Below the pieces are notes generated by a model, which was not told the origin of the DNA, did not search any database, and was given only the letters and a program-made list of their open reading frames with translations. 64,000 nt of DNA from Thermoplasmatota archaeon (GTDB lineage Archaea > Thermoplasmatota > JAKEGO01): NCBI GenBank assembly GCA_028279595.1, contig JANQNK010000006.1, positions 124,001-188,000 of the forward strand, given 5' to 3'. Position numbers and translations under genes: made by a program. Shown one piece after another: positions 1,912 to 23,935 of the stretch (positions are counted from its first letter, which is position 1; every line of letters begins with the position of its first letter).

Positions 1912-1913
1912 AG

Positions 1914-4241
1914 ATGGTCGATGGACAGATCCCGATCGAGGAGTACGAGACAGGCAACACTGTGCACGAGATCGACGTCGCTACCCTTCGGGGAGAACAC
2001 CGGGTGCTTGCCACCCATTCGTTCGAGAAGGGCGAGATAGTCAGAGGGTACAACCGCAGGACACTGCACGTTGACCTATCCAAGGGGACCATAGAGGAGA
2101 GGCCGGTGACCGACGACATGATCGCGAAGTTCACCGGCGGCCGCGGATTCGGCCTGAAGATCCTCTGGGACTCCATATCTCCAGGGACGAGGTGGGACAG
2201 CGAGGACAACGTTCTCGCGATCACCAACGGTCCGATGTGCGGGAACACCCAGTACCCGGGGTCCGGCAAGTCGATATGTCTCACCGTTTCACCATCTACC
2301 GATATAGTCTGCGATTCCAACGTTGGCGGTTTCTTCGGTCCTTTCCTCAAGTTCGCCGGGTTCGACGCCATGGCGATCCAGGGAAAGGCAAACGAGGACG
2401 TCGTCGTTGTGATCGACGGCATCGCCTCCGAGGTACGAATAGAGACTGCCCCCCTCGAGGAGACGAACACCCATGTCCTCTCGGAACAGCTCGCTCATAT
2501 CTACGCGGCGGAGGATACCGAGAAGTCGCGTCAGAGGGTCTCATCGATCACATCGGGCCTGGGTGCCGAGCACTCCTACTGGGGCTGCCTCAACTCGTCG
2601 TTCTACGATCCCCGGAGGAAGGTGGCACGTGTCAAGCAGGCGGGTCGAGGCGGACTCGGCACCGTCCTGAGGGACAAGAGGGTCAAAGGCGTCGTCGCGG
2701 TAGTTCCTAAGTTCACGGGAGTTGAGAACAATCCCGCAGACCCGGTCACGATGGCGAAGGTCGGGACCAAGCTGCACAAGGAGATACGGGACCTCGACAG
2801 GCATCAGTGCAACATGCGCGCCGTCGGCACGGGTCATCTGGTGGAGATCATGGACGCCTACGACCTACTGCCCTGCGAGAACTACAGGTTCGGCTCCTTC
2901 CCGAAGGCCTCGAAGCTGTACTCGCCGAAGTTCTACGACCTCTTCACGAAGGTCATCCCAGACGGCTGCTGGCACGGCTGCACGATGGCGTGCTCCAAGA
3001 CCGTCGACGGCTTCGAGCTCCGGACCGGCCCCTACGCCGGTCACCGCGTCACGGTGGACGGACCCGAGTACGAGACCGTCGGATGCGGCTCCAACATGGG
3101 CCTCTGGGAGCCGGAATGGGTCCTGGAGTTCAATTTCTACTGCGACACGTATGGTCTGGACACTATCTCGACCGGAACGGCGATCGCGTTCTACATGGAG
3201 ATGTACGAGTACGGGATACTCAACCGGGAGAGGTGCGACGACCTGGAGCTTTGCTTCGGCAACGCCCGCGCCGTCATGGAGTTCATGCACAGGATGGCCC
3301 GCGGAGACGATGGTGAGTTCATGAGCGTCGCTCCGAAGGGCATCCGCCGAGTCAAGGATTGGATCAAGGCCAAGGGCTGGGGCGACGAACGCCTCGTCGA
3401 GGACTGCGGCATGGAGAGCAAGGGTCTGGAGTATTCGGAATACGTGACGAAGGAGTCCCTCGCAATGCAGGGAGGCTACGGCCTGACCTTGAAGGGTCCA
3501 CAGCACGACGAAGCATGGCTGATATTCATGGACATGGTCAACAATGCTATACCCACGTTCCCGGACAAGGCCGAGGCTCTGCATTACTTCCCGATGTGGA
3601 GGACGTGGTTCGGATTGAACGGCTTCTGCAAACTGCCCTGGAACGACGTCGAGCCAGCGAACAATGCGGACACTGACGAGCCGTCCAAGGTCCCCGGACA
3701 CGTCCAGAACTACGTCGACCTGGTCAACGCCATGACTGGATCGGAGCTGGAGAAGGACGACCTGATCATCCAGAGCGAACGCTGCTACAACTGGCAGCGG
3801 GCGATGAACGTCTGGATGGGACGCGGCCGTCGAGCGGACGACTGGATCCCCTACAGGTCCATGGGCCCCGTCACCGAGATGGAATACGTCTCCAGGGAGG
3901 AGAGGTATGACACGGCCCTCGTCGAGAAGGCAGGTATGTCGAAGGACGAGGTTGCTGGCATGACCGTCCCGGAGAAGATGGAGGCGCTCTACCAGTTCCG
4001 GCAGGACCAGTACCAGAAGCTCGCAGACGCTGTTTACTTCCGCAGGGGATGGACACACAACGGCGTCCCAACGCCCCAGAAGATGATATCACTCGGGTTC
4101 GGTGACGAGGCGGACATGCTCAGGATGCTCCAGGACCGGATCGACGCTGACACAGCAGCGGGACTCAACGACTGGGGCGGTAATTACGACGAAAGCGAAG
4201 ACCCGCCGTCCGACGATCCCCTGTACTGGGAGAAATGGTGA
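1914..4241 (+). CDS. Aldehyde:ferredoxin oxidoreductase family protein (tungsto/molybdopterin enzyme)
   Basis: GYNRRTLHVDLSKGTI, TGGRGFGLKILWD, AITNGPMCGNTQYPGSGKS, CWHGCTMAC and FCKLPWND motifs; ATG at 1914 in frame with ORF 1659..4241. Confidence 0.92.
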   Translation: MVDGQIPIEEYETGNTVHEIDVATLRGEHRVLATHSFEKGEIVRGYNRRTLHVDLSKGTIEERPVTDDMIAKFTGGRGFGLKILWDSISPGTRWDSEDNVLAITNGPMCGNTQYPGSGKSICLTVSPSTDIVCDSNVGGFFGPFLKFAGFDAMAIQGKANEDVVVVIDGIASEVRIETAPLEETNTHVLSEQLAHIYAAEDTEKSRQRVSSITSGLGAEHSYWGCLNSSFYDPRRKVARVKQAGRGGLGTVLRDKRVKGVVAVVPKFTGVENNPADPVTMAKVGTKLHKEIRDLDRHQCNMRAVGTGHLVEIMDAYDLLPCENYRFGSFPKASKLYSPKFYDLFTKVIPDGCWHGCTMACSKTVDGFELRTGPYAGHRVTVDGPEYETVGCGSNMGLWEPEWVLEFNFYCDTYGLDTISTGTAIAFYMEMYEYGILNRERCDDLELCFGNARAVMEFMHRMARGDDGEFMSVAPKGIRRVKDWIKAKGWGDERLVEDCGMESKGLEYSEYVTKESLAMQGGYGLTLKGPQHDEAWLIFMDMVNNAIPTFPDKAEALHYFPMWRTWFGLNGFCKLPWNDVEPANNADTDEPSKVPGHVQNYVDLVNAMTGSELEKDDLIIQSERCYNWQRAMNVWMGRGRRADDWIPYRSMGPVTEMEYVSREERYDTALVEKAGMSKDEVAGMTVPEKMEALYQFRQDQYQKLADAVYFRRGWTHNGVPTPQKMISLGFGDEADMLRMLQDRIDADTAAGLNDWGGNYDESEDPPSDDPLYWEKW

Positions 4242-4444
4242 ACAAGGACGCCATTGCTAAATGAGAGTCGGACCGTATCCAATGCCCGCGCTTGAATTGA
4301 ATAGGTAGTAGGTTTCAACCTGGGTAATCCTGCCCATGCTAAGGCTCGTCAACATTATGTCAAGGATGACAATATGTGGTACTGGCTCCCTTTCCCGACA
4401 TTAGCGGATAGTTTTAAACGGAAAGTTGGCAATTCGGTTCCATC

Positions 4445-5035
4445 ATGCAGAACAGCGAGATCACCGCCAGGCTGAAGGAGGCCTCTGTGGGCATTGCCGG
4501 AGCCGGCGGTCTTGGATCGAACGTTGCCATGACCCTGGCGAGGGCCGGGGTGGGCCGTCTCGTCATCGTCGACATGGACCTCGTGGAGAAGGGCAACCTG
4601 GACAGGCAGTGCTTCTTCCTCGACCAGGTGGGGATGCCCAAGGTCGAGGCACTCAAGGAGAACATCGAGCGGGCCGTGGAAGGCGTCGTGGTCGATGCAC
4701 GGGAGGTCATGCTCGACGAGGGAAGCATGGACGAGCCCTTCAGGGACGTCGATATCATAGTCGAGGCGCTCGATCTGGCCGAGACGAAGGTCCGTCTGAT
4801 CGAGGAGGTCCTCATCAAGCTTCCGAAGACACCGATCGTCGCCGCCTCGGGCGTTGGCGGCATCGGCGGGAGCGAGCGCGTGTCGCTCAGGGTCTCCGGG
4901 ACCCTGTATCTGATCGAGGACCCCCACGGCATCCCGTGCGAGGAGGGCATCCTCACGGGGCCGAAGGTCGGACTCATGGCCCACTGGCAGGCGAACACGG
5001 TCATGGAGATCCTTCTGGGAGGTTCCTGCGAATGA
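4445..5035 (+). CDS. thiF: ThiF/HesA/MoeB-type sulfur carrier adenylyltransferase
   Basis: GAGGLGSNVAMTLARAGVGRLVIVDMDLVEKGNLDRQ nucleotide-binding motif. Confidence 0.85.
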   Translation: MQNSEITARLKEASVGIAGAGGLGSNVAMTLARAGVGRLVIVDMDLVEKGNLDRQCFFLDQVGMPKVEALKENIERAVEGVVVDAREVMLDEGSMDEPFRDVDIIVEALDLAETKVRLIEEVLIKLPKTPIVAASGVGGIGGSERVSLRVSGTLYLIEDPHGIPCEEGILTGPKVGLMAHWQANTVMEILLGGSCE

Positions 5036-5229
5036 TAACGGTCAACGGCAATGGAAGGGACCACGTCCCCGATGAGACCGTGTCCGGCCTCCTGAAGCGC
5101 CTCAACTACATCTTTCCCTTGGTAATAGTCAAGATCAACGGAACGGTGGTCCCGCGGGATTCGTTCCCGTCGGTCAACGTCCCCGACGGGGCCACGGTCG
5201 AGGTTATCCACCTGACCAGCGGAGGATGA
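5032..5229 (+). CDS. ThiS/MoaD-type sulfur carrier protein
   Basis: 65 aa beta-grasp-like sequence ending ...VIHLTSGG; ATGA overlap with thiF. Confidence 0.8.
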   Translation: MITVNGNGRDHVPDETVSGLLKRLNYIFPLVIVKINGTVVPRDSFPSVNVPDGATVEVIHLTSGG

Positions 5230-5234
5230 TACAT

Positions 5235-5405
5235 ATGGACAAGCTCGAGAGTGCACTCGCGGAGAGGGCAGTGGACGGGAGGATACCATGCAAGGTGGCG
5301 CTCGCGACTGCGAACGAACACAACGTCTCTCCGAAGGTCGTCGGGGAGGCCCTCGACAGAATGGATATCAGGATCGTCAACTGCCAGCTCGGCTGCTTCG
5401 AGTGA
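5235..5405 (+). CDS. Small conserved-looking protein with C-terminal NCQLGCFE motif
   Basis: 56 aa ORF not in the provided track (MDKLESALAERAVDGRIPCKVALATANEHNVSPKVVGEALDRMDIRIVNCQLGCFE); fits the gap in the operon. Confidence 0.65.
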   Translation: MDKLESALAERAVDGRIPCKVALATANEHNVSPKVVGEALDRMDIRIVNCQLGCFE

Positions 5406-5410
5406 ATCGA

Positions 5411-5941
5411 ATGTTGATCGTTTCGCTGATGGGATTGAAGAAGTGCGGAAAGACCACGACCGCCGAGGCATTGATCCGTGAGTTAAAATCCCGAGGTATG
5501 AACGTCTGCGCTGTCAAGTTCATGCCCCACTCGCAGTTCACGATCGACGTGGAGGGCAAGGACACCTTCAGACAGTTCAGTGCGGGCGCCGATATGGTGA
5601 TATCTCTTTCCGAGGGCCAGGTGGCAACAGTGGAACGGGCAGAGGGACGTACGGGTCTGGATGATGCCCTCGACAAGGTCCCGGAAAGCATCGACATAGT
5701 GATCTGCGAGGGCCTCACAGCCGAGCATCCGCGTGCTTGTACCGTCGTTCTCTCAAAGAGCGTCGATGGACTCGACGAGACGTTCAGGGTGAGGGGTAGA
5801 CCATCGAAGATCATCGCTTTCGCTGGTGTAATGGCCAACGATCTGGACCCTGGTGCCGAGATAGACGGAATTCCTGTGTTCAACGTGAATTCGCACGATG
5901 ATACGGTGCGTTTGGCCGATGTCGTCCTCTCCTGCCGCTGA
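5411..5941 (+). CDS. mobB: Molybdopterin-guanine dinucleotide biosynthesis protein B-like GTPase
   Basis: MLIVSLMGLKKCGKTTTAEALIRELKSRGMNVCAVKF P-loop and DIVICEGL motif. Confidence 0.8.
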   Translation: MLIVSLMGLKKCGKTTTAEALIRELKSRGMNVCAVKFMPHSQFTIDVEGKDTFRQFSAGADMVISLSEGQVATVERAEGRTGLDDALDKVPESIDIVICEGLTAEHPRACTVVLSKSVDGLDETFRVRGRPSKIIAFAGVMANDLDPGAEIDGIPVFNVNSHDDTVRLADVVLSCR

Positions 5942-6081
5942 AGGGCCGATTTTGGGCATTTTAAGCCTTTTGTGGGCATTCTACAGGATTGGATAACAGG
6001 ACTGGGGGGGGCAAAACGGTTAAAAAGGCCCGATGAATAACATGACACCTTCCACGTGAACGGAGGATATGGAGTCACTGA

Positions 6082-6915
6082 ATGAGCCCGAGGAGCATGA
6101 AGAGCAGGAGGAGCCGTTTCGAGGAGTACGAGGAAGACGACCTCCCCGACGAGCCGGACGACGGACCAGTCACGGACAGGCCGAGGGAGGAACCCCCGGC
6201 AGAGGAGGAGGAAGTGGAAGGGGAGGAGGAAGAGGCCGAAGAGGAGGAGGCGTTCCCCGACTTCGACAAGGAACTCGCCGACAAGGCTACGGCCCAACAG
6301 GGCGCGAGCCTCTCCCAGACATTCATGATCTTCCTGTTCATGATGACGATCATAATCATCATAGATCCGTCGATGCGTCGCTCTGCAGGACTCACCGTGG
6401 GCGCGGTCTTCGAACCGCTCATCGGGTTCGACGGAAAGTATCCTGTGTTCACGTTGATGTGCGCTTCCATGATCATGGTGAGCTTCTCATCCGTGCTGAG
6501 GCACTTCTTCACGGACTGGTACGAGACAGCCAGGTCCCAGAAGATAATGTCTACATACCAGAAGGAGCTCCGAGAGGCGCGGATGGCAGGCAACCAGAAC
6601 AAGGTGAAGAAGCTCATGGAGAAGCAGGGCGAGATCATGGCATATCAGTCCAAGATCATGCTCTCATCGATGAAGTCCATGGTCTTCACGACGATCGTCG
6701 CGATATCGATATTCACATGGCTGTTCACCTTCTTCGACAGCCTCGACTATCAGTACATCTCGCTCCCGTGGGCGGCGAGGTGGTCCATGATGGACAATCC
6801 GTACATTTTCCCAAACTGGGTACTCATATATTCCCTGATCTCGATACCCACCGGACAGCTCATCCTGCGTATATTGAAGATAATCGAGTTCCGGCCGAAG
6901 GGGTATAACGCATGA
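6082..6915 (+). CDS. EMC3/TMCO1-like (DUF106) membrane protein with acidic N-terminal extension
   Basis: Three TM segments with charged coiled-coil cytosolic loop (YQKELREARMAGNQNKVKKLMEKQGEIMAYQSKIM), typical of archaeal YidC/EMC3 homologues. Confidence 0.8.
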   Translation: MSPRSMKSRRSRFEEYEEDDLPDEPDDGPVTDRPREEPPAEEEEVEGEEEEAEEEEAFPDFDKELADKATAQQGASLSQTFMIFLFMMTIIIIIDPSMRRSAGLTVGAVFEPLIGFDGKYPVFTLMCASMIMVSFSSVLRHFFTDWYETARSQKIMSTYQKELREARMAGNQNKVKKLMEKQGEIMAYQSKIMLSSMKSMVFTTIVAISIFTWLFTFFDSLDYQYISLPWAARWSMMDNPYIFPNWVLIYSLISIPTGQLILRILKIIEFRPKGYNA

Positions 6916-7457
6916 TCACGGTCGGCGGACTCCCCGGGACCGGGACGACGACCGTCTGCAGGCTCCTCTCCGAGGCTCTCGGTCTCGAACACATATACGC
7001 AGGAGACATCTTCCGCAGGATGGCGGAAGAGAAGGGGATGGACCTCGTGGAATTCAACGTGTATTCCGAGACCCACCCCGAGGTCGACCGCGACCTCGAT
7101 GCCAGACAGATCGAACTGGCAGGCAAGGGCGGCCTGGTCCTCGAGGGAAGGATGTCCGGCTTCATGCTTCACAGGGAAGGTATACGTTCATTCAACGTCT
7201 GGCTGACCTGCTCGATCGACGAGAAGGTCAGGCGACTCGTGGAGAGGGAGCAGGGCGATCCCGAGGAGAGGGCCAGGGAGATCGAGGCGAGGGAGGCCTC
7301 GGAGCGGAAACGGTACACCGACCTCTACGGTTTCGACCCGGCTGACAGGCAGCAGCTCCTGACGACCTTCGACCTCGTCCTCGACACCACCGAGGTTCCA
7401 GCGGAGGACGTTGCCTCACTCATCGCAAATGCGTACAGGGGGTGGTCCTCTGGATGA
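6912..7457 (+). CDS. cmk: Cytidylate kinase, archaeal type
   Basis: MITVGGLPGTGTTTVCRLLSEALGLEHIYAGDIFRRMAEEKGMDLVEF. Confidence 0.9.
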   Translation: MITVGGLPGTGTTTVCRLLSEALGLEHIYAGDIFRRMAEEKGMDLVEFNVYSETHPEVDRDLDARQIELAGKGGLVLEGRMSGFMLHREGIRSFNVWLTCSIDEKVRRLVEREQGDPEERAREIEAREASERKRYTDLYGFDPADRQQLLTTFDLVLDTTEVPAEDVASLIANAYRGWSSG

Positions 7458-8346
7458 CCCCTACACCAACGGAATAATATTGCTGGACAAGCCCATGGGG
7501 CCTTCCAGCCATCAGGCATCCGCTTGGGTCCGGGACATCTTCGGCATCGATAAGGCGGGACACGGAGGGACCCTCGACCCACGAGTGACTGGCGTGCTCG
7601 TGGTCATGCTCGGCAACGCCACCCGGGGTGCCGGTGCACTCAATTACGGGGAGAAGGAGTACATCGGCGTCATCCGGTTCCACCGGGACGTCGACATCGA
7701 TACGGTATCCGAGACCGTGGAGCTCTTCACCGGCCGGATCTATCAGACGCCTCCTGTCCGGTCAGCGGTCGCGCGGAGACTGAGGCAGAGGACCATCCAC
7801 GAGCTCGAGTTCATCGAGATGGATGGACGGGACGCCCTGATACGCGCCAGGTGCGAGTCGGGTACCTACATCAGAACACTTGCAAGGGACATGGGGCGTG
7901 CGATCGGCACCGGAGCGCATCTCCAGGAACTCCGCCGGACGCGGTCATGTACCTTTACCATCGATGAATGCGTGACACTCCAGGACGTCAAGGACGCCCA
8001 TCACTTCTGGAAGGAGGAGGGCGACAGCACAGAGATGGACAGGATAGTGCAGCCCTTCGAGAGGCTGTTCGACCATCTGCCCGCGATCGTTGTCAAGGAT
8101 TCAGCCGTTGACGCTCTATGTCACGGCGCACCGCTGATGGCCCCTGGCGTCAGGAGCGCTTCTGGAGAGATCCGCAAGGGATCGATGGTCAGTGTCAAGA
8201 CCACCAAGGGCGAGGTCGTGGGCCTTGCCAAGACCGTCCTCGACGTGAAGACGATGGTCGAGGAGGAGAAGGGATTCGCAGCTAAGATGACCCGGGTCTT
8301 CATGGACCCGGGCACCTATCACAGGGTATGGAAGGTGAAGGGATGA
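7411..8346 (+). CDS. cbf5: tRNA/rRNA pseudouridine synthase Cbf5/TruB (true start probably downstream of 7411)
   Basis: GIILLDKPMGPSSHQ, GHGGTLDPRVTGVL, CESGTYIRTLARDMG, PUA-like C-terminus. Confidence 0.92.
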   Translation: MPHSSQMRTGGGPLDDPYTNGIILLDKPMGPSSHQASAWVRDIFGIDKAGHGGTLDPRVTGVLVVMLGNATRGAGALNYGEKEYIGVIRFHRDVDIDTVSETVELFTGRIYQTPPVRSAVARRLRQRTIHELEFIEMDGRDALIRARCESGTYIRTLARDMGRAIGTGAHLQELRRTRSCTFTIDECVTLQDVKDAHHFWKEEGDSTEMDRIVQPFERLFDHLPAIVVKDSAVDALCHGAPLMAPGVRSASGEIRKGSMVSVKTTKGEVVGLAKTVLDVKTMVEEEKGFAAKMTRVFMDPGTYHRVWKVKG

Positions 8347-12388: not shown

Positions 12389-15025
12389 TCACTTCATGCT
12401 CTCGAGCTCGTCGAGTATGGGCTGGATGTGATGGGTGTCGCCCCTCTCCTTGAAGATCTTCTTCGCCTTGTTGAAGAACGTCTTCGCCTGCTTGTCCTGC
12501 CCCATGTCCCTGTGGACGCGGCCTATGAGGAATAGCTTCTCGGCTATCCTTATCGGGGCGTTCCCCTTCTCCGCAAGCTCGAGGCTCTTGTTGAGGTACT
12601 CCAATGCATCCTCGTGATTCCCCTTGCTGGCATGGACGATCCCGTAGGCCATGTTGAGGTGTCCCATGAGAATGTGGTCCATGTCCGATCCGTGGATCCT
12701 CTCGGCCTCCTGGAGCCTCTCCAGGGCGTCGTCGTGCTTCTCCATCTCCGCAAGCGCCCTTACGGAGTTCATCAATGCGAACCCGAGGAGTTCGTGGGAA
12801 CCGCTCCTGCGTCCGGATTCGACGGCCATCTCCCAGTAGTGGTGGGCCTTCTCGATGTCCCCCTTGGAGAAATGGCACTCGCCCATGAGGTCGTAGACAC
12901 GACCGAGCTTGAAGACGTCCTTTCTCCCCTCGAAGAAGTCCAGGCTGACCTTCGCCAGTTCGAGGGCCTTGTCCATGTCGCCCATCGAGATGTAGATGGA
13001 CCCCATGTCGATCAGAAGGTCGTGATACTCGATGTCATGGGTCCCTTCCACGGCGTACTGGATCGCGAGTTCGAGGAGCTCCTTGGCCTTGCCGTGCTCC
13101 CCCTTGTGGATGAACAGCCTGGCAATTGCGCCGTTGACCATGGCCAACAGCCCCTTGTCCTTGGACTGGTTCGCCATGTCGAGAGCGATCTGAAGGTTGT
13201 TGTTGGCGTCGTCGACGTTCCCGAGGCTGAGTTCGAGCAACCCGAGCTGTCTGAATGCATGCGAGCGGGCCACGAAGTTCGTCGTGGATGACGAGTTCAG
13301 CGCCTTGTCGTAGTACTCCCTGGCGTTCTCGTGATCGGTCTCGAGGAAGTACATGTCCCCCTGGAGAATGTATATCTTGTAGAACTGGTCGGTCGGGATA
13401 TTGCCCTCGAGGTCCGTCAGTATGCTCTTGACCTCCGCGATGAGGCCGCGGTTCAGGGACTCGTTCCCGACCTTTCCGAGGATCTCGCTGGCGTCGTCGT
13501 AGTACTCGCCCTTGAGCAGATACCTTATCCCCTTCAGCGAGTCGAAGACCGTCTCCTTGCCGATGAAGTAGTCCGCTGCGTTCTTGCAGTGTTCCTTTAT
13601 CTCGGCCTCGGAGAGCCTAGAGTAGGTCACCTCGCGAAGGAGGTTCTGGAGATAGATCATGCCCGACGGCAGGTCCTGGATCAGGTGGAGGTCGATGAGG
13701 CGGTCGAGCGCCTCCATTGGTGGGTCGATGTAGAGCAGAGCGTCGATCTCGTTGGGATATGTGAGGACCGACGCGTAGTTGAGCAGTTTCCTCTCCTCCT
13801 CCTCGAGGCCGGAAAGCAGTTCGTCCTGGACGAACCGGTAAAGGTCGCTGGGCTTTTTCACGTCGTCGGGGTTCCTTATCAGTTCGAGGGACAGGGGATG
13901 CCCGCCCGTGATCTTGTAAAGGATATCGATGTTCGGTCCGGAGAACCCGCGCGAGCTGAGCATCTCCTCGGTGCCCTCGAAGCTCAGTCCCGACAGCTTC
14001 AGCTCCCCCACGTGGGAACGTATGTTGACGTCCCTCCTGTCGTAGAACTCGGGGGTTGTCCTGGATACGACGACCATCTTGAGGTCCTTGCCCGAAAGGG
14101 CCTCGAACATCTGTCCGAAGAAGCCGGCAAGCTCATCGTTCGCCTTCTCGTAGTTGTCGAAGACGAAGAGCGATGGCACGTCGCCGAGGTTCTCGCCGAT
14201 GAGTTCGATCGCCTCGTTGGTCTGGAACGATGACCTCGAGATCATCTTCTTGAGCTCCCTTGAAGCGTTTAGCGAGAAGAACTCGGCAAGCCTCGAAAGG
14301 ATGCTCCTGATGGTGTCCCATTCCGTGACGTTGCACCACAGTACGCTGTAGTCGCTGGTGAACTCGTCGATTACCTTGGCCAATAGAGTGGACTTCCCGA
14401 TCCCGGTTATCCCCGTGATGACGAGGACCTTCCTCTCGGATATGATCTTCCTCACGGACTCGAGTTCGCGGTCTCGTCCGATGAAGTTGCGTGGCTTTGG
14501 GGCATCGCTCAGCATGTGGACGCGCGTTGACATCTCCTTGTCCTCGGAGATGAACTTCTCGAGAGCCTCCATCTGAACGACATCCTTCCCGTCGTTCGCT
14601 ACCACAAGGACGGTCAATGGGGAGACACCGCCTCCCAGTCTCTCTACGAGGGTGAAAATGGGGACGTCCTCGACCTCGTCGCCGGTCCTTATCTTGATCT
14701 CCACGGCTTCGAGCTTCTCCTTGATGTCCTTCGCCTCGTCGATACCCTTCATGGTGAGGAAATAGATGTTGACCCGTCTCATGTGGCCTTCGACCATTCC
14801 CGTACGGACCTGAATGAGTTCGTCGTTGACGAGTCCCTTGAGCGAACGGGGGACGTGGTTCCAACGGATGCCCACGGCGTCCGCTATGCCCTTCTGGGAC
14901 AGGTCGTGGGGAAGAACTCCGAATATCTCGGTCTGCGACTCGTCTGAGACGTACCTTTCCGCAGGAAACTCGGAAAGATGGAGCAGTATCTTCTCCTTTA
15001 CCGTAAGCAAGCTCTTCTCCGTCAT
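12389..15025 (-). CDS. STAND-type NTPase with N-terminal winged helix and C-terminal TPR array
   Basis: wHTH-like N-terminus, RNFIGRDRELESVRK, VLVITGITGIGKSTLLAKVI Walker A, SLFVFDNYEK Walker B, multiple TPR repeats. Confidence 0.85.
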   Translation of the reverse strand: MTEKSLLTVKEKILLHLSEFPAERYVSDESQTEIFGVLPHDLSQKGIADAVGIRWNHVPRSLKGLVNDELIQVRTGMVEGHMRRVNIYFLTMKGIDEAKDIKEKLEAVEIKIRTGDEVEDVPIFTLVERLGGGVSPLTVLVVANDGKDVVQMEALEKFISEDKEMSTRVHMLSDAPKPRNFIGRDRELESVRKIISERKVLVITGITGIGKSTLLAKVIDEFTSDYSVLWCNVTEWDTIRSILSRLAEFFSLNASRELKKMISRSSFQTNEAIELIGENLGDVPSLFVFDNYEKANDELAGFFGQMFEALSGKDLKMVVVSRTTPEFYDRRDVNIRSHVGELKLSGLSFEGTEEMLSSRGFSGPNIDILYKITGGHPLSLELIRNPDDVKKPSDLYRFVQDELLSGLEEEERKLLNYASVLTYPNEIDALLYIDPPMEALDRLIDLHLIQDLPSGMIYLQNLLREVTYSRLSEAEIKEHCKNAADYFIGKETVFDSLKGIRYLLKGEYYDDASEILGKVGNESLNRGLIAEVKSILTDLEGNIPTDQFYKIYILQGDMYFLETDHENAREYYDKALNSSSTTNFVARSHAFRQLGLLELSLGNVDDANNNLQIALDMANQSKDKGLLAMVNGAIARLFIHKGEHGKAKELLELAIQYAVEGTHDIEYHDLLIDMGSIYISMGDMDKALELAKVSLDFFEGRKDVFKLGRVYDLMGECHFSKGDIEKAHHYWEMAVESGRRSGSHELLGFALMNSVRALAEMEKHDDALERLQEAERIHGSDMDHILMGHLNMAYGIVHASKGNHEDALEYLNKSLELAEKGNAPIRIAEKLFLIGRVHRDMGQDKQAKTFFNKAKKIFKERGDTHHIQPILDELESMK

Positions 15026-15143: not shown

Positions 15144-15881
15144 TCAATCAAGGGGCCTGTACTTGACGGTCGGTGTACCGTCTGTCTTCTCATTGCCGTC
15201 GAGGGGAATGACCACGGCCTCCTGGGCCTGTTCCTCGAACGGGACCTGCTCTGCCTGTATGACGTTCTGGTCCGCTCCCGGGGGATGTACGACCGGGCCG
15301 CCGGCCTGATATTCTTCCGCCGGACGGTCCTCCCTCGGTGGTTCGTTGCCCGGTTGCGATTCCATGAATGTGGGGGAATGGCCTTGCTGCTGGGGCTGCG
15401 GGGAAACAACTGCCGGCTGCGGCTGCTGGACCGCCTGCTGGGGCGGTTGCGGTGCGACCTGCTGTTGTGGCGCCGGCGGTCGGGGCTGCTGGGTCGGTGC
15501 AGGCTGAACCGGCTGGGGTGGTTGTGGGGTCCCCCTCCTAAGTTCGAGCGCCTCCGCCTTCAATCCCTCGACCTGTATCTTCAATTCGTCGATGTTGTCG
15601 TGGAGATTGGCGATGATCTCGACGTCCCGGACGTGCCTGTCCTTGAGCCGGGCGATCTCCTCGTCACGCTCCCTGATCTGCTTGGTGATGACCTCCTGTT
15701 GGGCGCCCGCCTTGGCAGCATCGATCCCGCCTCCAGTCCTGAGCCTCTCTATCTCGGCCTCCTTGGCTGCCAGTATGTCCTTGAGCTTCGCCAGTTGAGA
15801 ATGGATATCAGGACGCTTCGGCGGTCCAGCGCTCTTCTCGGTGAGCGAGCGCATCTCCTCTTCTTCAACGATCCTGATCAT
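15144..15881 (-). CDS. Coiled-coil protein with Pro/Gln-rich C-terminal region; shares N-terminal MI[RK]-x-[IV] motif with neighbours
   Basis: MIRIVEEEEMRSLTEKSAG start (15881); heptad-rich helix then PQPPQPVQPAPTQQPRPPAPQQQ; lacks CxxC. Confidence 0.7.
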   Translation of the reverse strand: MIRIVEEEEMRSLTEKSAGPPKRPDIHSQLAKLKDILAAKEAEIERLRTGGGIDAAKAGAQQEVITKQIRERDEEIARLKDRHVRDVEIIANLHDNIDELKIQVEGLKAEALELRRGTPQPPQPVQPAPTQQPRPPAPQQQVAPQPPQQAVQQPQPAVVSPQPQQQGHSPTFMESQPGNEPPREDRPAEEYQAGGPVVHPPGADQNVIQAEQVPFEEQAQEAVVIPLDGNEKTDGTPTVKYRPLD

Positions 15882-15894
15882 GTCCTGATCACCG

Positions 15895-16713
15895 TCAGAC
15901 CTTTCCGGCGCCCCTGCAGTTGGGACATACCTCTTGGACGATGCTTCCGTCCTTCTTCCTAACGCCGATGACACCCTCTCCTCCGCAGACGGGGCAGATG
16001 GCCTGTTCCCCGATGTCCTCGGGTATGGGTATCGTCTCGGGTACCTCGGCGACCTCCGCCGGGATCGGAGCCTCCTCCTGCGGTTCTGGGGCGGCTTCCG
16101 CGCCCTTTACCGTTTCCACCGTCTGGGCCTTCTCATCCTGTTGCTTGGCACCCAGGATAGATCCTGATCCTTCGGGCTTTCCACCGAGGAGTCTACCGCG
16201 CGACTCGGGTTGTGCCGGTGCAGCCTCCTCGACCGGAGCGAAGACCGGGGTCGGTCCCGCCTGGGGCTTCTTCATCGTGTCGCTCATCTGATGGAGCTCT
16301 CCGGTAAGATCGGATATCCGCTGTTCGAGCTCCTCCTTGTAAGCTGTGGTCTTGTCGAGGATCTCCTTGTCGAGCTCGATCTTCTTGTCCCTCTCCGTGA
16401 TCAGTGCTTTGAGGTCCTGTATCTCGCCCTTGAGCGTCTCCAGGATGCCAGGGTCGGTCTCTGCGGCCGGTGGGCCGTCCTTGGGAGCTGGAGCCTTGGC
16501 CTTCTCCTGCTCGAGCGCGGCCTTCGTCGCGTCGAGCTCCTCCTGGAGCTTGGTGTTCTCGTCCTTCATCGTCTTGAGCTCCTGGATCGCCTTGTTGAGC
16601 TTCTCCTTGAGGTTCTCTACGATGTCGGTGATCTGCTTCTTGAGCTTGAGTTGCTCAGACGTCTTCTCCTGCTTCGACCGCTCCATCTCGTCCTCGGTGA
16701 TCATCCTGACCAT
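15895..16713 (-). CDS. Coiled-coil protein with C-terminal DnaJ-type zinc finger
   Basis: Start MVRMITEDEMERSKQEK (ATG 16713 preceded by GGAGG); C-term CPVCGGEGVIGVRKKDGSIVQEVCPNCRGAGKV*. Confidence 0.75.
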   Translation of the reverse strand: MVRMITEDEMERSKQEKTSEQLKLKKQITDIVENLKEKLNKAIQELKTMKDENTKLQEELDATKAALEQEKAKAPAPKDGPPAAETDPGILETLKGEIQDLKALITERDKKIELDKEILDKTTAYKEELEQRISDLTGELHQMSDTMKKPQAGPTPVFAPVEEAAPAQPESRGRLLGGKPEGSGSILGAKQQDEKAQTVETVKGAEAAPEPQEEAPIPAEVAEVPETIPIPEDIGEQAICPVCGGEGVIGVRKKDGSIVQEVCPNCRGAGKV

Positions 16714-16726
16714 TCCGACCCTCCAT

Positions 16727-17521
16727 TCATGTTCTCCCAGTTCCACCGCACCGCGGACATGAGACCTCCTTCTCGGCGTCCCCGTCCTGCACGATCACCT
16801 TCTTTCTCCCCTTGCAGAGGTCGCAGCGTTTCGACCTTCCAGCCAGGGGAGGCGCTAGGTTCAGCACTATTGTGTCGTTAGTGCCACTTTCCTTATTTAA
16901 ACTTTCCAACTGCTGCTTGGCCTTCCTGAGCTCTGCTACGATAGCGCTGGACTTCGTCTTGAGCTCATCGTATCTCGCAGTGTGCTTCTGACCATCCTTC
17001 CTGAGCTTCTCGTTCTCGACAGTCAGGTGCTTGATCCTCTCGATCGCAGCGGGGTCGGGCCCCGATTGGGTTGCCGTCGATGGCGACGCCCTCAACGACT
17101 CGACCTCCGCGAGCAGGTCCCGTCTGATCTGCTCGTACTGGGACTTGATGCCCTCGAACGAACGTATCTGCTGGTCCCTGTCGGTTATCATACGCTTGAG
17201 GATGTCGATCTCCTTCTCTTTCTCGGCGACGCTCTTCGTGATCGCCTGTATCCTCTTCTGCATCTCCCCTACCTTCTGCCTGAAGGATTCGGGTATCTCG
17301 CTCTGCGCCTTGGCCTGACGGATCCTCGTGACCGCCCATTTGAGCTCGTTCTGAAGCGTCTCCTTGGCCGCCGCGCTCTCCTCGAGGTCGGTCCTGAGCG
17401 AATTGATCTGATTGGTCAATGTATCGATGGTCCGAAGATGGATCTCCTCCTCCGCCTTGCCCTTGGCAATGAGCTGCTTGAGACTCTCGACCTGGGCTTT
17501 AAGCGGATCGGACCCTGTCAA
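16727..17521 (-). CDS. Coiled-coil protein with C-terminal DnaJ-type zinc finger
   Basis: Long coiled coil; C-term CDLCKGRKKVIVQDGDAEKEVSCPRCGGTGRT*; TTGA start/stop overlap with upstream gene. Confidence 0.75.
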   Translation of the reverse strand: MTGSDPLKAQVESLKQLIAKGKAEEEIHLRTIDTLTNQINSLRTDLEESAAAKETLQNELKWAVTRIRQAKAQSEIPESFRQKVGEMQKRIQAITKSVAEKEKEIDILKRMITDRDQQIRSFEGIKSQYEQIRRDLLAEVESLRASPSTATQSGPDPAAIERIKHLTVENEKLRKDGQKHTARYDELKTKSSAIVAELRKAKQQLESLNKESGTNDTIVLNLAPPLAGRSKRCDLCKGRKKVIVQDGDAEKEVSCPRCGGTGRT

Positions 17522-18975
17522 ACTATACCAGCTCCGTCACACCTAGGACACGTCTCCTCCCTGACGTGGCCGTGCCTGTCCTTGACCCCGACCTTCCCGA
17601 GGCCACCGCATACCGGACAGACCTTGCCCAATGTGTCGCTCACCGGCACCTCGGCCGGCGGAGGGGGCGGTGCGGCCGCCTTGGCCGGAGGTGCCGCCTG
17701 TGCCTCTGCCGGCGCTGCGGGAGGCGGTGGTGCCGCGGCCTTGGTCTCCAGCCTCTCGTTGAGCCTCTGTACGGCGGTCTCGAGGGCAGTGTTCCTTCCG
17801 TTAGCCTCGTCGAGCTCCTTCCTGGTCTTCTCGAGCTCGGCGTTGAGTCCGTCCCTCTCGGCCATGATCATCTTGACGTCGCCGCTCTCCGCGGCGATCT
17901 TCGCGTTCTCTGCCTCCAGGTCCGCGATCCTCTTGTTGAGGCCCTCCCGTTCGGTCTTCCAGGAGGCTTCCTTCTCGGTGAGGGTAGCCTTGACGGCCTC
18001 CATCTGCTCCGACTCTCCGGCCTTGTCGCCCTGGAGCTTGACGTATTCCTGCTTGACGGCCGCGATGGTGTCCTTGACCTCCGTGAGGTCCTTCTTCAGC
18101 TTGGCGTTCTCCTCCTTGAGCTTGACGACCTCAGCGGAACCGGCCTTCTCGAGTTCAGCGATCCTCATGTCCCGCATCTGCACCTCCTTGTTGAGGCGCT
18201 CGATCTCGCGGGTAAGGCCCTGTACCTTGTCCGTGGAACCCGAGCTCTGCTTGACGATCTTGGCGTTCTCGGCCGTGAGCCTCTCGACCTCCCGGGTCAG
18301 GGCGTCCGCCTTCTCCTTGACTGCGGCCGAATCCTTCTGGACCTTCTCGTTCTCGGCGGCGGATATCTCCGCGGCCTCCTTCATGGATGCCAGCGAGGCC
18401 TCGGCGGTCTCGATCCTCTTCGTGAGCTCCGCCCTCTCCTTCTCGACGACCCCGATCGCGGTCTTCATCTCCTCGATCTCGTCGTTCTTCGTCCTCAGGG
18501 AGGTCGTGACCTTCTCCAGCCTCTCCTTGTCAGCGGTCCTGTCCTTGTCGGCCTTCTCGAGGGCCTTCCTGGCGGCCTCGAGACCGGCCAGCGCCTTCTT
18601 CGCTTCCTCGAGCTCGGCAGCTGCCTTTCCTGCCTTCTCGAGGTCCTTCTGGAGCTGATCGTTGGTGGCCTTGAGCCCCTTCAGGGTCTCCTTGGCCGCA
18701 CCGACCGTCTTCTTCATCTCCTCCCTCTCCTTGTCGAGGGAGTCCACCTGTTTCGTAAGGTCTGCGATCCGCTTCTCGGAGGCTGCGGTATCCTTCTTGG
18801 CCGCATCGGCGTCGGCGGTCATCTGTTCCACGACCACTTTTAGGCGCGATATCTCACGCGCCCTTTCCTCGATCTTCCTCTCTGATTCGGATATCCTCTC
18901 CTTCAGTTGGAGGTTCTCAGACTTCTTCTCCTCGTCGAAAAGGTCCTTCTCGTCCTCGGATATCACCTTGATCAT
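17518..18975 (-). CDS. Long coiled-coil protein with C-terminal DnaJ-type zinc finger
   Basis: MIKVISEDEKDLFDEEKK start; ~400 aa coiled coil; C-term CPVCGGLGKVGVKDRHGHVREETCPRCDGAGIV*; ATGA overlap with upstream gene. Confidence 0.8.
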   Translation of the reverse strand: MIKVISEDEKDLFDEEKKSENLQLKERISESERKIEERAREISRLKVVVEQMTADADAAKKDTAASEKRIADLTKQVDSLDKEREEMKKTVGAAKETLKGLKATNDQLQKDLEKAGKAAAELEEAKKALAGLEAARKALEKADKDRTADKERLEKVTTSLRTKNDEIEEMKTAIGVVEKERAELTKRIETAEASLASMKEAAEISAAENEKVQKDSAAVKEKADALTREVERLTAENAKIVKQSSGSTDKVQGLTREIERLNKEVQMRDMRIAELEKAGSAEVVKLKEENAKLKKDLTEVKDTIAAVKQEYVKLQGDKAGESEQMEAVKATLTEKEASWKTEREGLNKRIADLEAENAKIAAESGDVKMIMAERDGLNAELEKTRKELDEANGRNTALETAVQRLNERLETKAAAPPPPAAPAEAQAAPPAKAAAPPPPPAEVPVSDTLGKVCPVCGGLGKVGVKDRHGHVREETCPRCDGAGIV

Positions 18976-20123
18976 ATCTTACCCGCTCCTTTGCATCTCG
19001 GACACATCTGTTCGTTCAGTTTTCCGCGTTTGCCCCTCACCATCACGCGTCCCTTGCCCGAGCAAACCGGACAATCCTTCTTCCCCTTCTTCGAGCGCTT
19101 TCCACCCTTCTTCTTGACGGGCTTCCTGGGGGAACTATCCACCTTTGGAGGTCCCGGAGGTTGTACGTCGGGTTCCTCGGGCTCTTCTTCCTCGGCACCC
19201 TCGAGTATCCCCTTGACGTTGACCTCGTTGTGACACCATGGACAGATGGCCTTTTGAACCTTCCTGTCCACGATGAACGTACCGTGGCAGTAGGGGCACT
19301 CCACCTCGGTATCGCTCCTCGTCCTGCGTTCTGGATTGAGAGTGAACTCCACGGTCCTGGACGCATACGGCGGTATGTTCACATACGCCTCCGACGGCAC
19401 CGGAATGAACCCTTCCGGGGAGAATGGTTCTATGTGCAACGTCTCGAGGGACCGTTCCGACTCGTTCCTTATCTTGATCCGATAGACCAGGCCCTCACCC
19501 TTCTCGGTCAGGACCGTCGATATCGAGGCGTCCCTGCCCGGGACGAACTCCTCGGCGGTGTACGCATCGGTGTTCATCGGATTGAGCTCGAATATCCTCG
19601 CCTCTTCGCCGAAGGGCTTGAGGCTGATGACCTCGCTCTGCGGGGTCGGGACGAATATCGAGTTGGATGTGTCCGGAATGATGTTGATCCGGTTCAGGGG
19701 CTGCCCGAGGTTGTTTCGAACGAGGACCTTGTAGAGGATCCTGTTCTCGACCCGGGCGAAGACCGTCTTGATAGTGAGCTCGCGTCCGGGCTTCGGCTTG
19801 ACCATGGTCGCTGCCACGGCGCGTTCCGCCAGGGAGATGCACTCCTCGAACTGGTTCTCCTTGAGGGCGCGCTTGGCCTTCGTCAACAGGTCCTTCGCGC
19901 TGTTGACATCGATGCGTGCGTCCTGTGCCTTCAGGATCGAGCGTTCGGCGAATTCGACGGCACCCTTGGCGCTGTGCGCCATGCTCAGCTGTTCACGGAC
20001 CATGTTCTCGGCCTTCTCGGAGAGTCCCCGTGCCCTTTTCGGCTTTTCCTGGTCAAGGGCCAGTCTCGCCTTAGCGAGGACCTCCTCAGCCTCCGAGGTG
20101 TCGATATCGATCCTTTCGTCCAT
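18972..20123 (-). CDS. Helical-repeat + beta-domain cytosolic protein with a zinc ribbon and C-terminal DnaJ-type zinc finger
   Basis: CPYCHGTFIVDRKVQKAICPWCHNEV ribbon; C-term CPVCSGKGRVMVRGKRGKLNEQMCPRCKGAGKI*. Confidence 0.75.
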   Translation of the reverse strand: MDERIDIDTSEAEEVLAKARLALDQEKPKRARGLSEKAENMVREQLSMAHSAKGAVEFAERSILKAQDARIDVNSAKDLLTKAKRALKENQFEECISLAERAVAATMVKPKPGRELTIKTVFARVENRILYKVLVRNNLGQPLNRINIIPDTSNSIFVPTPQSEVISLKPFGEEARIFELNPMNTDAYTAEEFVPGRDASISTVLTEKGEGLVYRIKIRNESERSLETLHIEPFSPEGFIPVPSEAYVNIPPYASRTVEFTLNPERRTRSDTEVECPYCHGTFIVDRKVQKAICPWCHNEVNVKGILEGAEEEEPEEPDVQPPGPPKVDSSPRKPVKKKGGKRSKKGKKDCPVCSGKGRVMVRGKRGKLNEQMCPRCKGAGKI

Positions 20124-20124
20124 G

Positions 20125-23100
20125 TTACTCCTCCCCCTCTTTTACCGATTCTATGAACGCCTTGGCATGCATGTAGGCGCCCTTTGCCGTCTCCAGCATG
20201 GAGACGATGATGTATACGGCTATAAGACCGAGTATGAGTGCGATGAGCGGATAGATGAAGGTCGGGAACGGCAGCAGGTCAGGAGTGAGGAAAAGGCCTT
20301 CGAGCATGGTGCCGATCGATCTCCCCGAGGATAGGCTCAGGAAGAATATGCCGAACATCAGGCCGCATATGGCGAGCGTGCTGATGTATGACTTCGTTCT
20401 GATCCCGGTGATGATGGTGTAGAGCGGGACTATCATCACGAGCATTATGTACGCGAGCGGAAGGGCAGCCGCGTCGATCGCCGCGCTCTCGACCGGCAGG
20501 AGGACGAACAAGGAGATCGCCGTCGTCACGACCAGACCCTTGATGAGGTGCTCGTTCCGCCGCTGTTTGAGGCTCACGCGCTTCGCGTTCGCCCTTAGCA
20601 TCGCGAAACCACCGAGAAGTATGATCGGCAGTGCGATGAGGACGATCGGGTTGGGGCGTTTGCTGACCTTTATCTCCGTAGAAACGACGTTGTTCCTCCG
20701 CCGTCCCGGGTCACTCCCCTCATAGCCTTCGCTGGCCGCCTTGATCGTCAACGTGTGTCGCTCCGAACGGTTGAACCAGTCGAGCTCCGGGATCTCGATC
20801 TCGATTGCGAGGGTCCTCTCCCCCTCCATGGGAAGGTCGATCTGGACCTCGTGGATGAGGTCTCCGTCCCAGTAGACCTCGATCGGCAGGTTCGAGAGGG
20901 TGTCGATGACCGGGTCCCCCGTCTCCCTGCCGGTGGACCTAACGGTGAACGTTACGGTGAGCTCGTCCCCCTCCTGTGCGATGTCATCGATGTCCACGTC
21001 CGAGATGGATATGTCTGGCGAGAGCGTGATTATCAGGAAGTTGAGCTCCTCGGGCGTCGGCAGTGCGTCGACCCAGACGTTCACGGTGAAGTCGAGTTCG
21101 GAGAAATGGGGTATCGAGGGTGCGGAATGTATCGTCGCATAGATGATCCGGTCCTGACCGGGAGCCAGCAGGAAACTGGAGTTGTCGAGCTCGATCTCCC
21201 AACCGGAATAGAAGGTCGTGGAGTTGAGCGTGAACGTCCGCTGTACGGGGAACTCGTTCCTGATGAGGATGCCGTAGTCGATCTCGGAATCCGGGAATAT
21301 GTAGACGAACGGAGGTCCGTAGGGCATGACGAACGAGGTCTCGACCTCGATGCGTACGTCGTCGTATCCCGGACCCTCGACCACCGAACCGGACACGTCT
21401 ACGTAGTTGATCGGGTCGTTGAGGGAGTTGGACGGCGGCCTGATCGTAACGTAGACCGTAGTGCTCTCGTCGAAATCGAGGGTGACCGATGGTCTGTCGA
21501 GCCACACGGTCCAATCGCCGGTCTGAGAGACGTCGAGTGTGACGTTCTCTCGGCCGTTGCCGGTGTTTATTACGTAGACAGGGACGATCAGAGGTTCGTT
21601 GGGTATTACCTTCCACACGTCGCTCCCGCCCCAGATGTCCAGGTCCCGTGTCTGGAGGTCGACACCCGTGACGAGGTCGACGATGACCTTCCCCCATTCG
21701 GAGTCGGACACCTTGCTGTCGTGCTTCGATGTGAGGTTCAGGATGATGGTATCGCTGCTGTCCGCGATGAGTCCGTACGGGATGTACACCCTGATCTGGA
21801 GTATTCGGGTCTCTCCGGGATCGACGAGGTCCAGGGCCTCGGGATTGATCATGTCGGTCTCCCAATCTGAGGTCGACACGATGTCCTCGTTGTAATTGTC
21901 TATCCCGTTCCCAGTATTGTTGAATGTGAAGTTGAGGACAGTCTCCCCTCCAGGGGGCCCCCTCGCCGTCATCACAGGGCGTATCTCGACCCCTCCGACC
22001 TGGGTCAGCGATATCGTGCATGTGGAAAAGTCGCTCTTGGTCGGGTCCGCAGTGGAGTTGACCTCGACGACGATGATGTAGACCTCGTCCTCGAGCGCGT
22101 CCTCCGGTATCTGTACCCTCAGGGTGATCGTCGTTGTCAGACCTGCTAGCACCGAACCGGTGATATCCCCCGGTAACAGGGAGATCGAAAGGCTCTGATT
22201 GTTCACTGTCCTCAGGCCGAAGGAGTCCTCGCCATTGCCCGTGTTGGTCACGATGAGCTCCATATCGACAGTGTCGCCCGGTTCCGCGGTGGTAGCGTTC
22301 TCCTCGGGTTCGATGGTAACGGAATAGCCCTGAAGGACGTTTATGTACGAGAAGGCGCTATCGCTCGTGGTCCCATCACCACAGGTGGCGGTGAGGACAA
22401 GGGTCTCGTTCGTTCCGACGGGAGTTCCTGGATTGATGGTGACGTTCACGATGATATCCACATTCTCGTCGTATTCGAGGTTCACCAGCGGCTGTGAATC
22501 GACGACGAAGGTCAGATTGGTCGATCCGTCGATCGAGAACGAGTCCATGTCGTTCCCCTGGTTGCGGATGTTGAACGTGAACTGGACAGCTTCCATCGGT
22601 TCCCCGGACTGGATAACTGGATCGATCGCGGTGACCTCGACACCGTAGACCTGGGGGATCATCGCCACGAGGTCGACCACCCGGTACTTCGAGCTGTCGG
22701 CGTCGGACTCGGCCCGGACAGTGATGTGGGCCCGCCTGTTGTCCGGCCTGTCCCTCGATTCCATCGTAATCGTTATTATCTCAGATTCGCCATTATCAAG
22801 TGTAATGCCGTCCGGAGGTGCTCCATTCTCAACATTTACCAGCCAGTTTGGGGGCGCTGTTGAGTTGGTAATGTAGAACGTGTCAGTACTCTCGTAGTTC
22901 GCCACGTTGGTCACGTTGACGAGGAATACCGCGGTCTCTCCTATCCCGATCTCGACGGGAGATTCGCTGATGAGCCTGATGTCGACGTCATTGGATTCGG
23001 AGACGTCGATGGAGGCCTGGGATGACGCGTCGACGTAGATGTCATAGTCGGATGTCACCTGGATACGCAGCGTTGCGGTGGTGTCGGCGGCTATGACGTT

Positions 23101-23736
23101 GTTCCACTCGGATCGCGGCACGATGACGTCCACGCTGACGGAGATGGAGTCACCCATGTCGAGGTCCTCTATCTTGTCGTCGAACGTGACGTTCCAGACC
23201 CTGTACTGGGTGTCGATGCAAAGGGCCTCGACTGTGAAGTTGTCCATGGCATTCCCGGTGTTCCACACGGTGAAGTTGATGGTGATGGTCTCGCCGGGAT
23301 CGCCGAAGAACGTGCCTGGAGTGTTGATAGCTACTCCGGCCACGGGAAAGACCCTGGTCGTGGCCTGGGCCGTGTCGGTGGCGCTCGACGCCTGGGATAT
23401 AGCCTGGAGGGTGACGTAGTCGACGGTGTTGGCCTGTGTCCCTGCCGGGATGGAGACGATGACCTCGATATCTTCCTCGATCTGGCCGGATGATAGTGTG
23501 ATGTTCGATGGCTGGACCACAGTCCAACCCCGGGAGGAGTTCGCCACGAGATCGTAGGAATCGGTTTGGCTACCAGTGTTCTCCACATCGAAGTGATGGG
23601 TGATGTTCGCGCCTGGAAATCCCCATCCGCCACCTCCATCCGGTCCCCGTACATCGACGTCGTACTGCGCCGCCCCGGGACCGCAGAGGAACAGTGCGAA
23701 GAAAACGACGCACAAGAACAACCAATGCAGCCTCAT
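20125..23736 (-). CDS. Large extracytoplasmic repeat protein (NEW3/CARDB-like domains) with C-terminal multi-TM region
   Basis: Signal peptide; repeated 'N.GN..D.F' beta-sandwich repeats; about five or six C-terminal TM helices. Confidence 0.8.
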
Positions 23737-23935
23737 ACCTTCACCTTTTCGCGATACGCCTGGACTCCAAGTTATTCAATTCTGTCTATATATAGTTTGT
23801 TTGGTGGTATTTTCCGCGTTCCGTGACAAATCGAGAATCACCAGCGTCCGGTGGTTTCCGTGGTTTATTGGTCACGTTCGTATCCCAATCACTATCTTTT
23901 TATCCGGCCGGGGCCTTCTGCGGAACGGTGATCCA

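What the first reader, a model, noticed from the sequence alone, without database searches (positions are those of the whole stretch)
15144..23736. Five-gene coupled operon: giant extracytoplasmic repeat protein plus coiled-coil proteins sharing a C-terminal DnaJ-type zinc finger
Seen in sequence: five minus-strand genes with 1-nt gap (20125/20123), ATGA overlap (18975/18972), TTGA overlap (17521/17518) and 13-nt gaps. Four products (18972-20123, 17518-18975, 16727-17521, 15895-16713) end exactly with C-x2-C-x-G-x-x-x-V-x-V-x(9-12)-C-P-x-C-x-G-x-G-x2. That is half of the DnaJ cysteine-rich domain, without any J-domain. Three of them are mostly coiled coil. The first gene is a 1203-aa signal-peptide protein with NEW3/CARDB-like repeats and a multi-TM C-terminus. 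Established: CxxCxGxG pairs bind one zinc and in DnaJ/Hsp40 bind unfolded substrates. Inference: an envelope-anchored complex with a cytoplasmic coiled-coil scaffold whose subunits carry a shared zinc-bound tag (assembly, chaperone or cytoskeleton-like role). I know of no named system with this make-up.
Basis: partly seen in the sequence, partly recalled or inferred. Interest (0 to 1): 0.82.

Follow-up and report, generated by a model that had tools for sequence, protein, structure and literature searches.

The report
Archaellum-linked envelope and scaffold operon
A six-gene operon in an uncultured archaeon encodes a giant surface protein, its small partner and four coiled-coil proteins, and relatives of the first two sit inside the operon for the archaeal swimming motor, so this is probably an undescribed accessory that holds that motor in the cell envelope.

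Summary
In detail: a tight minus-strand operon (six genes, not five) encodes a 1203-aa secreted Ig-repeat protein with five C-terminal TM helices (g1), a helical/Ig/zinc-ribbon protein (g2) and four coiled-coil proteins (g3-g6). g2-g5 end in one CxxCxG...CPxCxGxG tail. The tail profile finds nine copies in 390 Thermoplasmatota genomes, all in this cluster in this order. The six-gene order is conserved in a second family (L042). Genes 3, 5 and 6 also share an N-terminal motif (MIKVISEDE) found only here.

g1 and g2 occur in exactly the same 13 of 390 genomes, and all 13 encode an archaellum. In nine of them (three families) the pair sits directly upstream of arlB-CDE-F-G-H-I-J. In a genome with two archaella the pair goes with one. 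In this genome the complete archaellum operon is on another contig, without the pair.

Best reading: g1+g2 are an archaellum accessory, probably an external anchor for the stators plus its cytoplasmic adaptor. In this order it gained a coiled-coil scaffold whose subunits share a zinc tag like DnaJ zinc centre II. The archaellum link is well supported comparatively; anchor and scaffold roles are inferred. I found no description of it.

The parts
20125..23736 (-). g1: 1203-aa giant extracytoplasmic protein; signal peptide (h-region ~5-23), ~10 Ig-like/NEW3/CARDB repeats, 5 TM helices (1031-1178), short C-terminal helix predicted cytoplasmic
   Evidence: (choice-of-anchor T repeats 159.6 bits); TM module found in exactly 13/390 phylum genomes
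18972..20123 (-). g2: 383-aa protein; helical hairpins (1-105), two Ig-like beta domains (115-265), zinc ribbon (276-298), zinc tail (349-383)
17518..18975 (-). g3: 485-aa coiled-coil protein; N-terminal MIKVISEDE motif, Pro-rich linker, zinc tail
16727..17521 (-). g4: 264-aa coiled-coil protein (TTG start), zinc tail
15895..16713 (-). g5: 272-aa coiled-coil protein; N-terminal motif (MVRMITEDE), linker, zinc tail
18972..19079 (-). zinc tail of g2: CPVCSGKGRVMVRGKRGKLNEQMCPRCKGAGKI
17518..17625 (-). zinc tail of g3: CPVCGGLGKVGVKDRHGHVREETCPRCDGAGIV
16727..16831 (-). zinc tail of g4: CDLCKGRKKVIVQDGDAEKEVSCPRCGGTGRT
15895..16002 (-). zinc tail of g5: CPVCGGEGVIGVRKKDGSIVQEVCPNCRGAGKV
18949..18975 (-). 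shared N-terminal motif of g3 (MIKVISEDE); g5 copy at 16687-16713, g6 copy at 15855-15881
   Evidence: in G000 and G002 found only in this cluster
23788..23800 (-). TATA-like stretch (CTATATATAG) about 50-60 nt upstream of the g1 start, between g1 and the divergent urocanase gene; possible operon promoter (inference)
   Evidence: read from the sequence

Best explanation
g1 and g2 form one unit that belongs to a particular lineage of archaellum in Thermoplasmatota. g1 is a long extracellular Ig-repeat protein held by five TM helices, ending in a short helix predicted to be cytoplasmic. g2 is its predicted cytoplasmic partner. Together they most likely anchor the static parts of the motor: the ectodomain gives ArlF/ArlG something outside the membrane to hold, and g2 ties the motor to the cytoplasm. 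In the order to which this window belongs the pair lies outside the arl operon and is encoded with four coiled-coil-type proteins. These would build a cytoplasmic scaffold under the pair, joined through the zinc tail shared by g2, g3, g4 and g5 and through the N-terminal motif of g3, g5 and g6. Shown here by computation: gene order, homology, exact g1-g2 co-occurrence, location in the arl operon in three families, and confinement of the tail. Inferred: topology, the anchor role, the scaffold role, and that the tail is an assembly tag.
For: g1 TM module and full-length g2 occur in the identical 13 of 390 genomes (chance 1.6e-24 without correction for kinship). All 13 encode an archaellum: ArlI is over its curated cut-off in 11; G083 has archaellin and part of ArlH, and G028 has archaellin, ArlCDE-like and ArlF-like genes directly after the pair, with the rest of the locus masked. 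In 9 genomes of 3 families the pair is directly upstream of arlB-arlCDE-F-G-H-I-J as far as contigs reach, with overlaps or gaps of 25 nt or less in L046. G054 has two archaella; the pair lies in the one whose ArlH groups with the other pair-bearing archaella (100/97), not with its other copy, on whose contig CheF lies. Pair-bearing archaella form one branch of the ArlH tree (78/81, not strong; G010 counted in). This genome has a complete arl operon at G000:C4. Six-gene order and orthology of g2-g5 are conserved in L042. Tail and N-terminal motif are found only in the cluster.
Against: In this order and in G041 the pair is not beside the arl operon. Co-occurrence with the archaellum at family level is modest (6 of 6 families, p about 0.01). 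Most archaellated genomes of the phylum lack the pair (169 with an archaellum, 13 with the pair), so it is not needed for an archaellum as such. No physical interaction has been shown. AlphaFold models are of moderate to low confidence and suggest no specific relative. The g3-g6 evidence rests on two genomes (G000, G002). ArlF and ArlG are present, so nothing is obviously missing that g1 must replace.
Confidence: 0.45

Rival explanations
1. A general cell-surface complex: g1 is a structural surface protein with cytoplasmic partners that shape or stiffen the envelope. It lies in the arl operon only because both are expressed together.
For: Ig-repeat membrane proteins are common in archaea (general knowledge). 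In f1, f2 and f26 the pair is away from the arl operon. The repeat region matches the generic choice-of-anchor T model.
Against: The 5-TM module is rare (13/390) and not seen in any genome without an archaellum. In G054 the pair follows one archaellum type of two.
Confidence: 0.25
2. A polar-cap-like organiser: g3-g6 form a cytoplasmic sheet or cone under archaellum bundles, with g1-g2 as its membrane link. The composition of the euryarchaeal polar cap is not known.
For: Coiled-coil proteins with Pro-rich linkers and shared end motifs are typical of scaffolds (inference). A polar cap is seen beneath archaella in Pyrococcus and Thermococcus (PMC8978795).
Against: g3-g6 were found only in this order, so they cannot be the general polar cap. 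No polar cap was seen in the related Oxyplasma (PMC12448462). No image exists for this lineage.
Confidence: 0.15
3. A zinc-finger chaperone or assembly-factor set for the giant protein: the tails bind unfolded g1 or other clients, as the DnaJ cysteine-rich domain does.
For: Best solved match of the tail is the DnaJ cysteine-rich domain at its second and third repeats (1exk, E 2.1e-7).
Against: No J domain. The proteins are mostly coiled coil, with one tail each on four different subunits. Pfam score is below cut-off. A separate ordinary DnaJ is present at G000:C14. g1 homologues elsewhere do without tails.
Confidence: 0.1
4. Unrelated genes thrown together: the coiled-coil genes serve something else and share only transcription with the pair.
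For: Only two genomes show g3-g6.
Against: Same order in two families at low sequence identity, and the same tail on g2 and g3-g5, which ties the coiled-coil genes to the pair.
Confidence: 0.05

Closest known systems
Archaellum machinery (ArlB, ArlCDE, ArlF, ArlG, ArlH, ArlI, ArlJ)
   Same: g1-g2 homologues are the first two genes of this operon in three Thermoplasmatota families; all 13 pair-bearing genomes have an archaellum
   Different: g1 and g2 match no Arl model in the libraries used and are absent from most archaellated genomes of the phylum
ArlF/ArlG stator with S-layer anchor
   Same: proposed job: fix the motor to something outside the membrane; S-layer-less Thermoplasmatales swim and their anchor is unknown (PMC12448462)
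   Different: g1 is a single-chain, multi-TM Ig-repeat protein, not an S-layer lattice; anchoring is not shown
Euryarchaeal polar cap
   Same: cytoplasmic sheet thought to organise archaella; composition unknown (PMC8978795)
   Different: g3-g6 are restricted to one order; no imaging of that order
DnaJ/Hsp40 cysteine-rich domain (zinc centre II)
   Same: CxxCxGxG pair with a V-rich hairpin; 1exk residues 29-61, E 2.1e-7
   Different: no J domain, one putative zinc site instead of two, at the C-terminus of coiled-coil proteins
Anti-TRAP (RtpA)
   Same: small protein with one pair of CxxCxGxG-type motifs and no J domain; weak match to 3lcz (E 1.8e-4)
   Different: anti-TRAP is a free 53-residue regulator; here the motif is a tail, and only one half of the profile aligns at a time

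Membership tests
Archaellum core machinery | homology to ArlB/CDE/F/G/H/I/J | tested here: not met
   No Pfam Arl model matches g1-g6 and no NCBIfam Arl model matches g1 or g2; these models do match the separate arl operon in G000:C4
Archaellum accessory (operon-associated) | homologues encoded inside arl operons | tested here: met
   g1-g2 only: 9 genomes in families f10, f11, f28; for G011 and G050 the locus is split over contig ends. Not the case for g3-g6
Archaellum accessory (operon-associated) | present only in genomes with an archaellum | tested here: met
   13 of 13 (G028 by archaellin and ArlCDE, its ArlH region is masked)
Archaellum accessory (operon-associated) | needed for swimming or located at the motor | not testable with these tools
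   needs genetics or imaging
DnaJ/Hsp40 | J domain with HPD motif | tested here: not met
   no J-domain match in g1-g6; a separate ordinary DnaJ is at G000:C14
DnaJ/Hsp40 | four CxxCxGxG repeats, two zinc sites | tested here: not met
   one pair per protein, Pfam DnaJ_CXXCXGXG 17.6-23.4 bits against cut-off 32.7
Zinc-binding CxxCxGxG hairpin | four cysteines conserved as ligands | tested here: met
   four cysteines present in all eight full-length copies; the G001 fragment as entered lacks the first column. Zinc itself was not measured
Polar cap | cytoplasmic sheet under archaella | not testable with these tools
   no image; molecular definition not known
S-layer protein | abundant lattice-forming surface protein | not testable with these tools
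   g1 has signal peptide, Ig repeats and 21 N-glycosylation sequons in the ectodomain against a shuffle mean of 11, but five TM helices

The most novel reading that the evidence does not exclude
One archaeal order has evolved a dedicated cytoskeletal platform for its swimming motor: a trans-envelope unit (g1-g2) taken from the archaellum operon and a set of coiled-coil proteins that assemble through a common DnaJ-like zinc tag and a common N-terminal motif. It would be the first polar-cap-like archaellum scaffold with named genes.
Probability: 0.2. Interest if true: 0.85.

Novelty: new variant of a known kind. Interest (0 to 1): 0.63.

Why it matters
How the archaellum motor is held still is open, above all in archaea without an S-layer (PMC12448462), and the make-up of the cytoplasmic polar cap is unknown (PMC8978795). 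g1-g2 give a named, testable candidate that sits in the motor operon in several lineages. The zinc-tailed coiled-coil set gives a candidate scaffold in one order. The case also shows a zinc motif known from DnaJ used as a common end tag on several subunits of one operon.

Tried and rejected
Pfam, NCBIfam and PHROGs gave only repeat, coiled-coil or sub-threshold zinc matches for the operon's proteins (NCBIfam was run on g1 and g2 only). Profile search of solved structures with g2 gave nothing specific. Foldseek on the g2 model gave generic Ig-type hits with TM-scores of 0.2 or less over the query, so no relative is claimed. The weaker hits of the g2 helical part in large proteins across the phylum were not taken as orthologues because they cover only about the first 105 residues. 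One extra tail-like hit in G002 (C121, E 2.2e-6) is a 91-aa zinc protein with the motif not at its end and was set aside. A chemotaxis link was tested with CheF: absent in 12 of 13. A first ArlH tree held a bad row (G042) and rejected one clade for the pair with G010 left out; without G042, and with G010 (a fragmented genome, pair not detected) counted in, the pair is one branch with weak support. One tree call failed on a grouping error. Contig joins were sought by exact end overlap of 12 bases or more and none was found; an 8-base overlap is visible by eye in G011.
Full report
WHAT IS THERE. The window lies in a 2.29-Mb genome (G000, contig C11) of the Thermoplasmatota: its closest named relatives carrying the cluster are Thermoplasmata archaeon PMV_4.75 (G001/L130) and Candidatus Thermoplasmatota archaeon PL23a_bin.42 (G002/L131). 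On the minus strand, 23736 down to 15144, six genes follow each other with gaps of 1, -4, -4, 13 and 13 nt. g1 (1203 aa) has a signal peptide, about 1000 residues of Ig-like repeats (NCBIfam choice-of-anchor T 159.6 bits; CARDB above cut-off) and five TM segments at 1031-1178. Its ectodomain has 21 N-glycosylation sequons against a shuffle mean of 11 and maximum of 21; g2-g6 together have 2. g2 (383 aa) is predicted as helical hairpins (pLDDT near 90), two Ig-like domains and a zinc ribbon (pLDDT about 60-75), with the tail at the end. g3, g4 and g5 show heptad periodicity above shuffles; g6 does not.

THE TAIL. g2-g5 end in the same 33-36 residue element. A profile of nine copies finds, at E<=1e-7, only the copies in this cluster: four in G000, four in G002, one in G001 whose contig ends there, none in 387 other genomes of the phylum. 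Against solved structures its best match is the DnaJ cysteine-rich domain 1exk, residues 29-61, E 2.1e-7, that is the second and third CxxCxGxG repeats; from established knowledge of DnaJ these form zinc centre II. No J domain is present and the Pfam DnaJ model stays below its cut-off. An ordinary DnaJ is encoded elsewhere in the genome.

A SECOND SHARED ELEMENT. g3, g5 and g6 begin with MIKVISEDE-like residues, as do their counterparts in G002. In G000 and G002 a profile of it finds these six places and no other.

CONSERVATION OF THE CLUSTER. In G002 (L042) the same six genes stand in the same order with four tails. g2, g3, g4 and g5 match their counterparts one to one over their length; g3 and g5 tails are most like their own counterparts (67% and 58%), so the set was probably already distinct before the two families split.

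THE WIDER CONTEXT. The 5-TM module of g1 is found in exactly 13 of 390 phylum genomes. Full-length g2 is found in the same 13. In six genomes of family f10, two of f28 and one of f11, g1-g2 stand directly before archaellin, ArlCDE, ArlF, ArlG and, where the contig allows, ArlH, ArlI, ArlJ. The archaellum identity was confirmed by Pfam and NCBIfam: archaellin, FlaC and Arch_fla_DE, ArlH 233.7 bits over cut-off 215, FlaI 705.7 over 550, ArlJ. In L046 all neighbours overlap or are 25 nt or less apart. In G011 and G050 the locus is split over contig ends; in G011 g2 itself is split at matching residues. Where the pair is not in the operon (G000, G001, G002, G041) an archaellum is still encoded. 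The whole operon arlB-CDE-F-G-H-I-J of this genome is at G000:C4, about 135-142 kb.

IS THE ASSOCIATION REAL? ArlH is found in 168 of 390 genomes. That all 13 pair-bearing genomes have an archaellum has p 1.4e-5 by genomes, but the genomes are related; by families it is 6 of 6, p about 0.01. The stronger points are position in the operon in three families, and G054, which has two archaella: the pair is beside one, whose ArlH groups with f10 (100/97), while the other groups elsewhere. All pair-bearing archaella form one branch of the ArlH tree, with weak support 78/81 and with G010, where the pair was not detected, counted in. CheF is missing in 12 of 13; the one in G054 is on the contig of its other archaellum.

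MECHANISM. With a signal peptide, an outside repeat region and five TM helices, the C-terminus of g1 should be cytoplasmic (inference). g2 lacks a signal peptide and carries zinc sites, so it should be cytoplasmic (inference). Ten Ig-like domains reach about 40 nm (general knowledge), enough to cross a pseudoperiplasm. The archaellum stator ArlF/ArlG is thought to hold on to the S-layer, and it is unclear what it holds in S-layer-less Thermoplasmatales (PMC12448462). g1 is a good candidate for such a hold or for a cage around the motor. The coiled-coil set of this order, tied to g2 by the same tail, is most simply a cytoplasmic scaffold under that unit. A polar cap beneath archaella is known from other euryarchaea but its proteins are not (PMC8978795); g3-g6 cannot be the general polar cap, since they are limited to one order. 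Whether this lineage has an S-layer was not tested.

WHAT IS KNOWN. I found no paper describing g1-g2 or the zinc-tailed set; the library covers open-access papers only. The 2016 census of archaeal type IV pilus and archaellum loci does not mention a giant accessory gene by the terms searched (PMC4858521).

VERDICT. Real, conserved, undescribed as far as I could find. The anchor role and the scaffold role of g3-g6 are reasonable but unproved (about 0.4 each). The whole statement is given 0.45.

Noticed in passing
G054 contigs C14 and C117 (L050): Two archaellum loci in one genome: C14 with CheF on the same contig, C117 with the g1-g2 pair. The two ArlH copies fall in different parts of the tree.
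   Followed up: partly
L148 (G011:C242) 398-4492 and 4434-8168: Two giant membrane proteins in tandem before the g2 start in family f11, where other families have one.
   Followed up: no
G167:C1:413786, G007:C3:116840, G256:C7:92684 and many others: The helical N-terminal part of g2 resembles repeats in very large proteins (about 1440-3200 aa frames) found across the phylum; identity and function unknown.
   Followed up: no
L090 4630-5712 (G007), L091 7602-8744 (G026), L092 7292-8413 (G040): Shorter g2 relatives (two Ig-like domains, acidic C-terminus) in families f7, f21, f24, all with an archaellum but in unrelated neighbourhoods and without a detected g1.
   Followed up: partly
L056 969-4592 (G000:C4) and L147 8892-9965 (G001:C175): A large protein gene with a Pro/Gln-rich C-terminus lies convergent to arlJ in both genomes of family f1.
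   Followed up: no
window 12389-15025, minus strand: STAND-type ATPase with TPR repeats and an N-terminal winged-helix-like region just downstream of the operon; at this place in G002 there is no counterpart on the contig.
   Followed up: no
window 56541-63998, minus strand: A 2485-aa open reading frame reaching the window edge, ending in a CPSC zinc-ribbon-like motif.
   Followed up: no
L168 3770-4045 (G002:C121): A 91-aa zinc protein with a similar CxxCxGxG pair, not at the C-terminus; not part of the cluster.
   Followed up: yes
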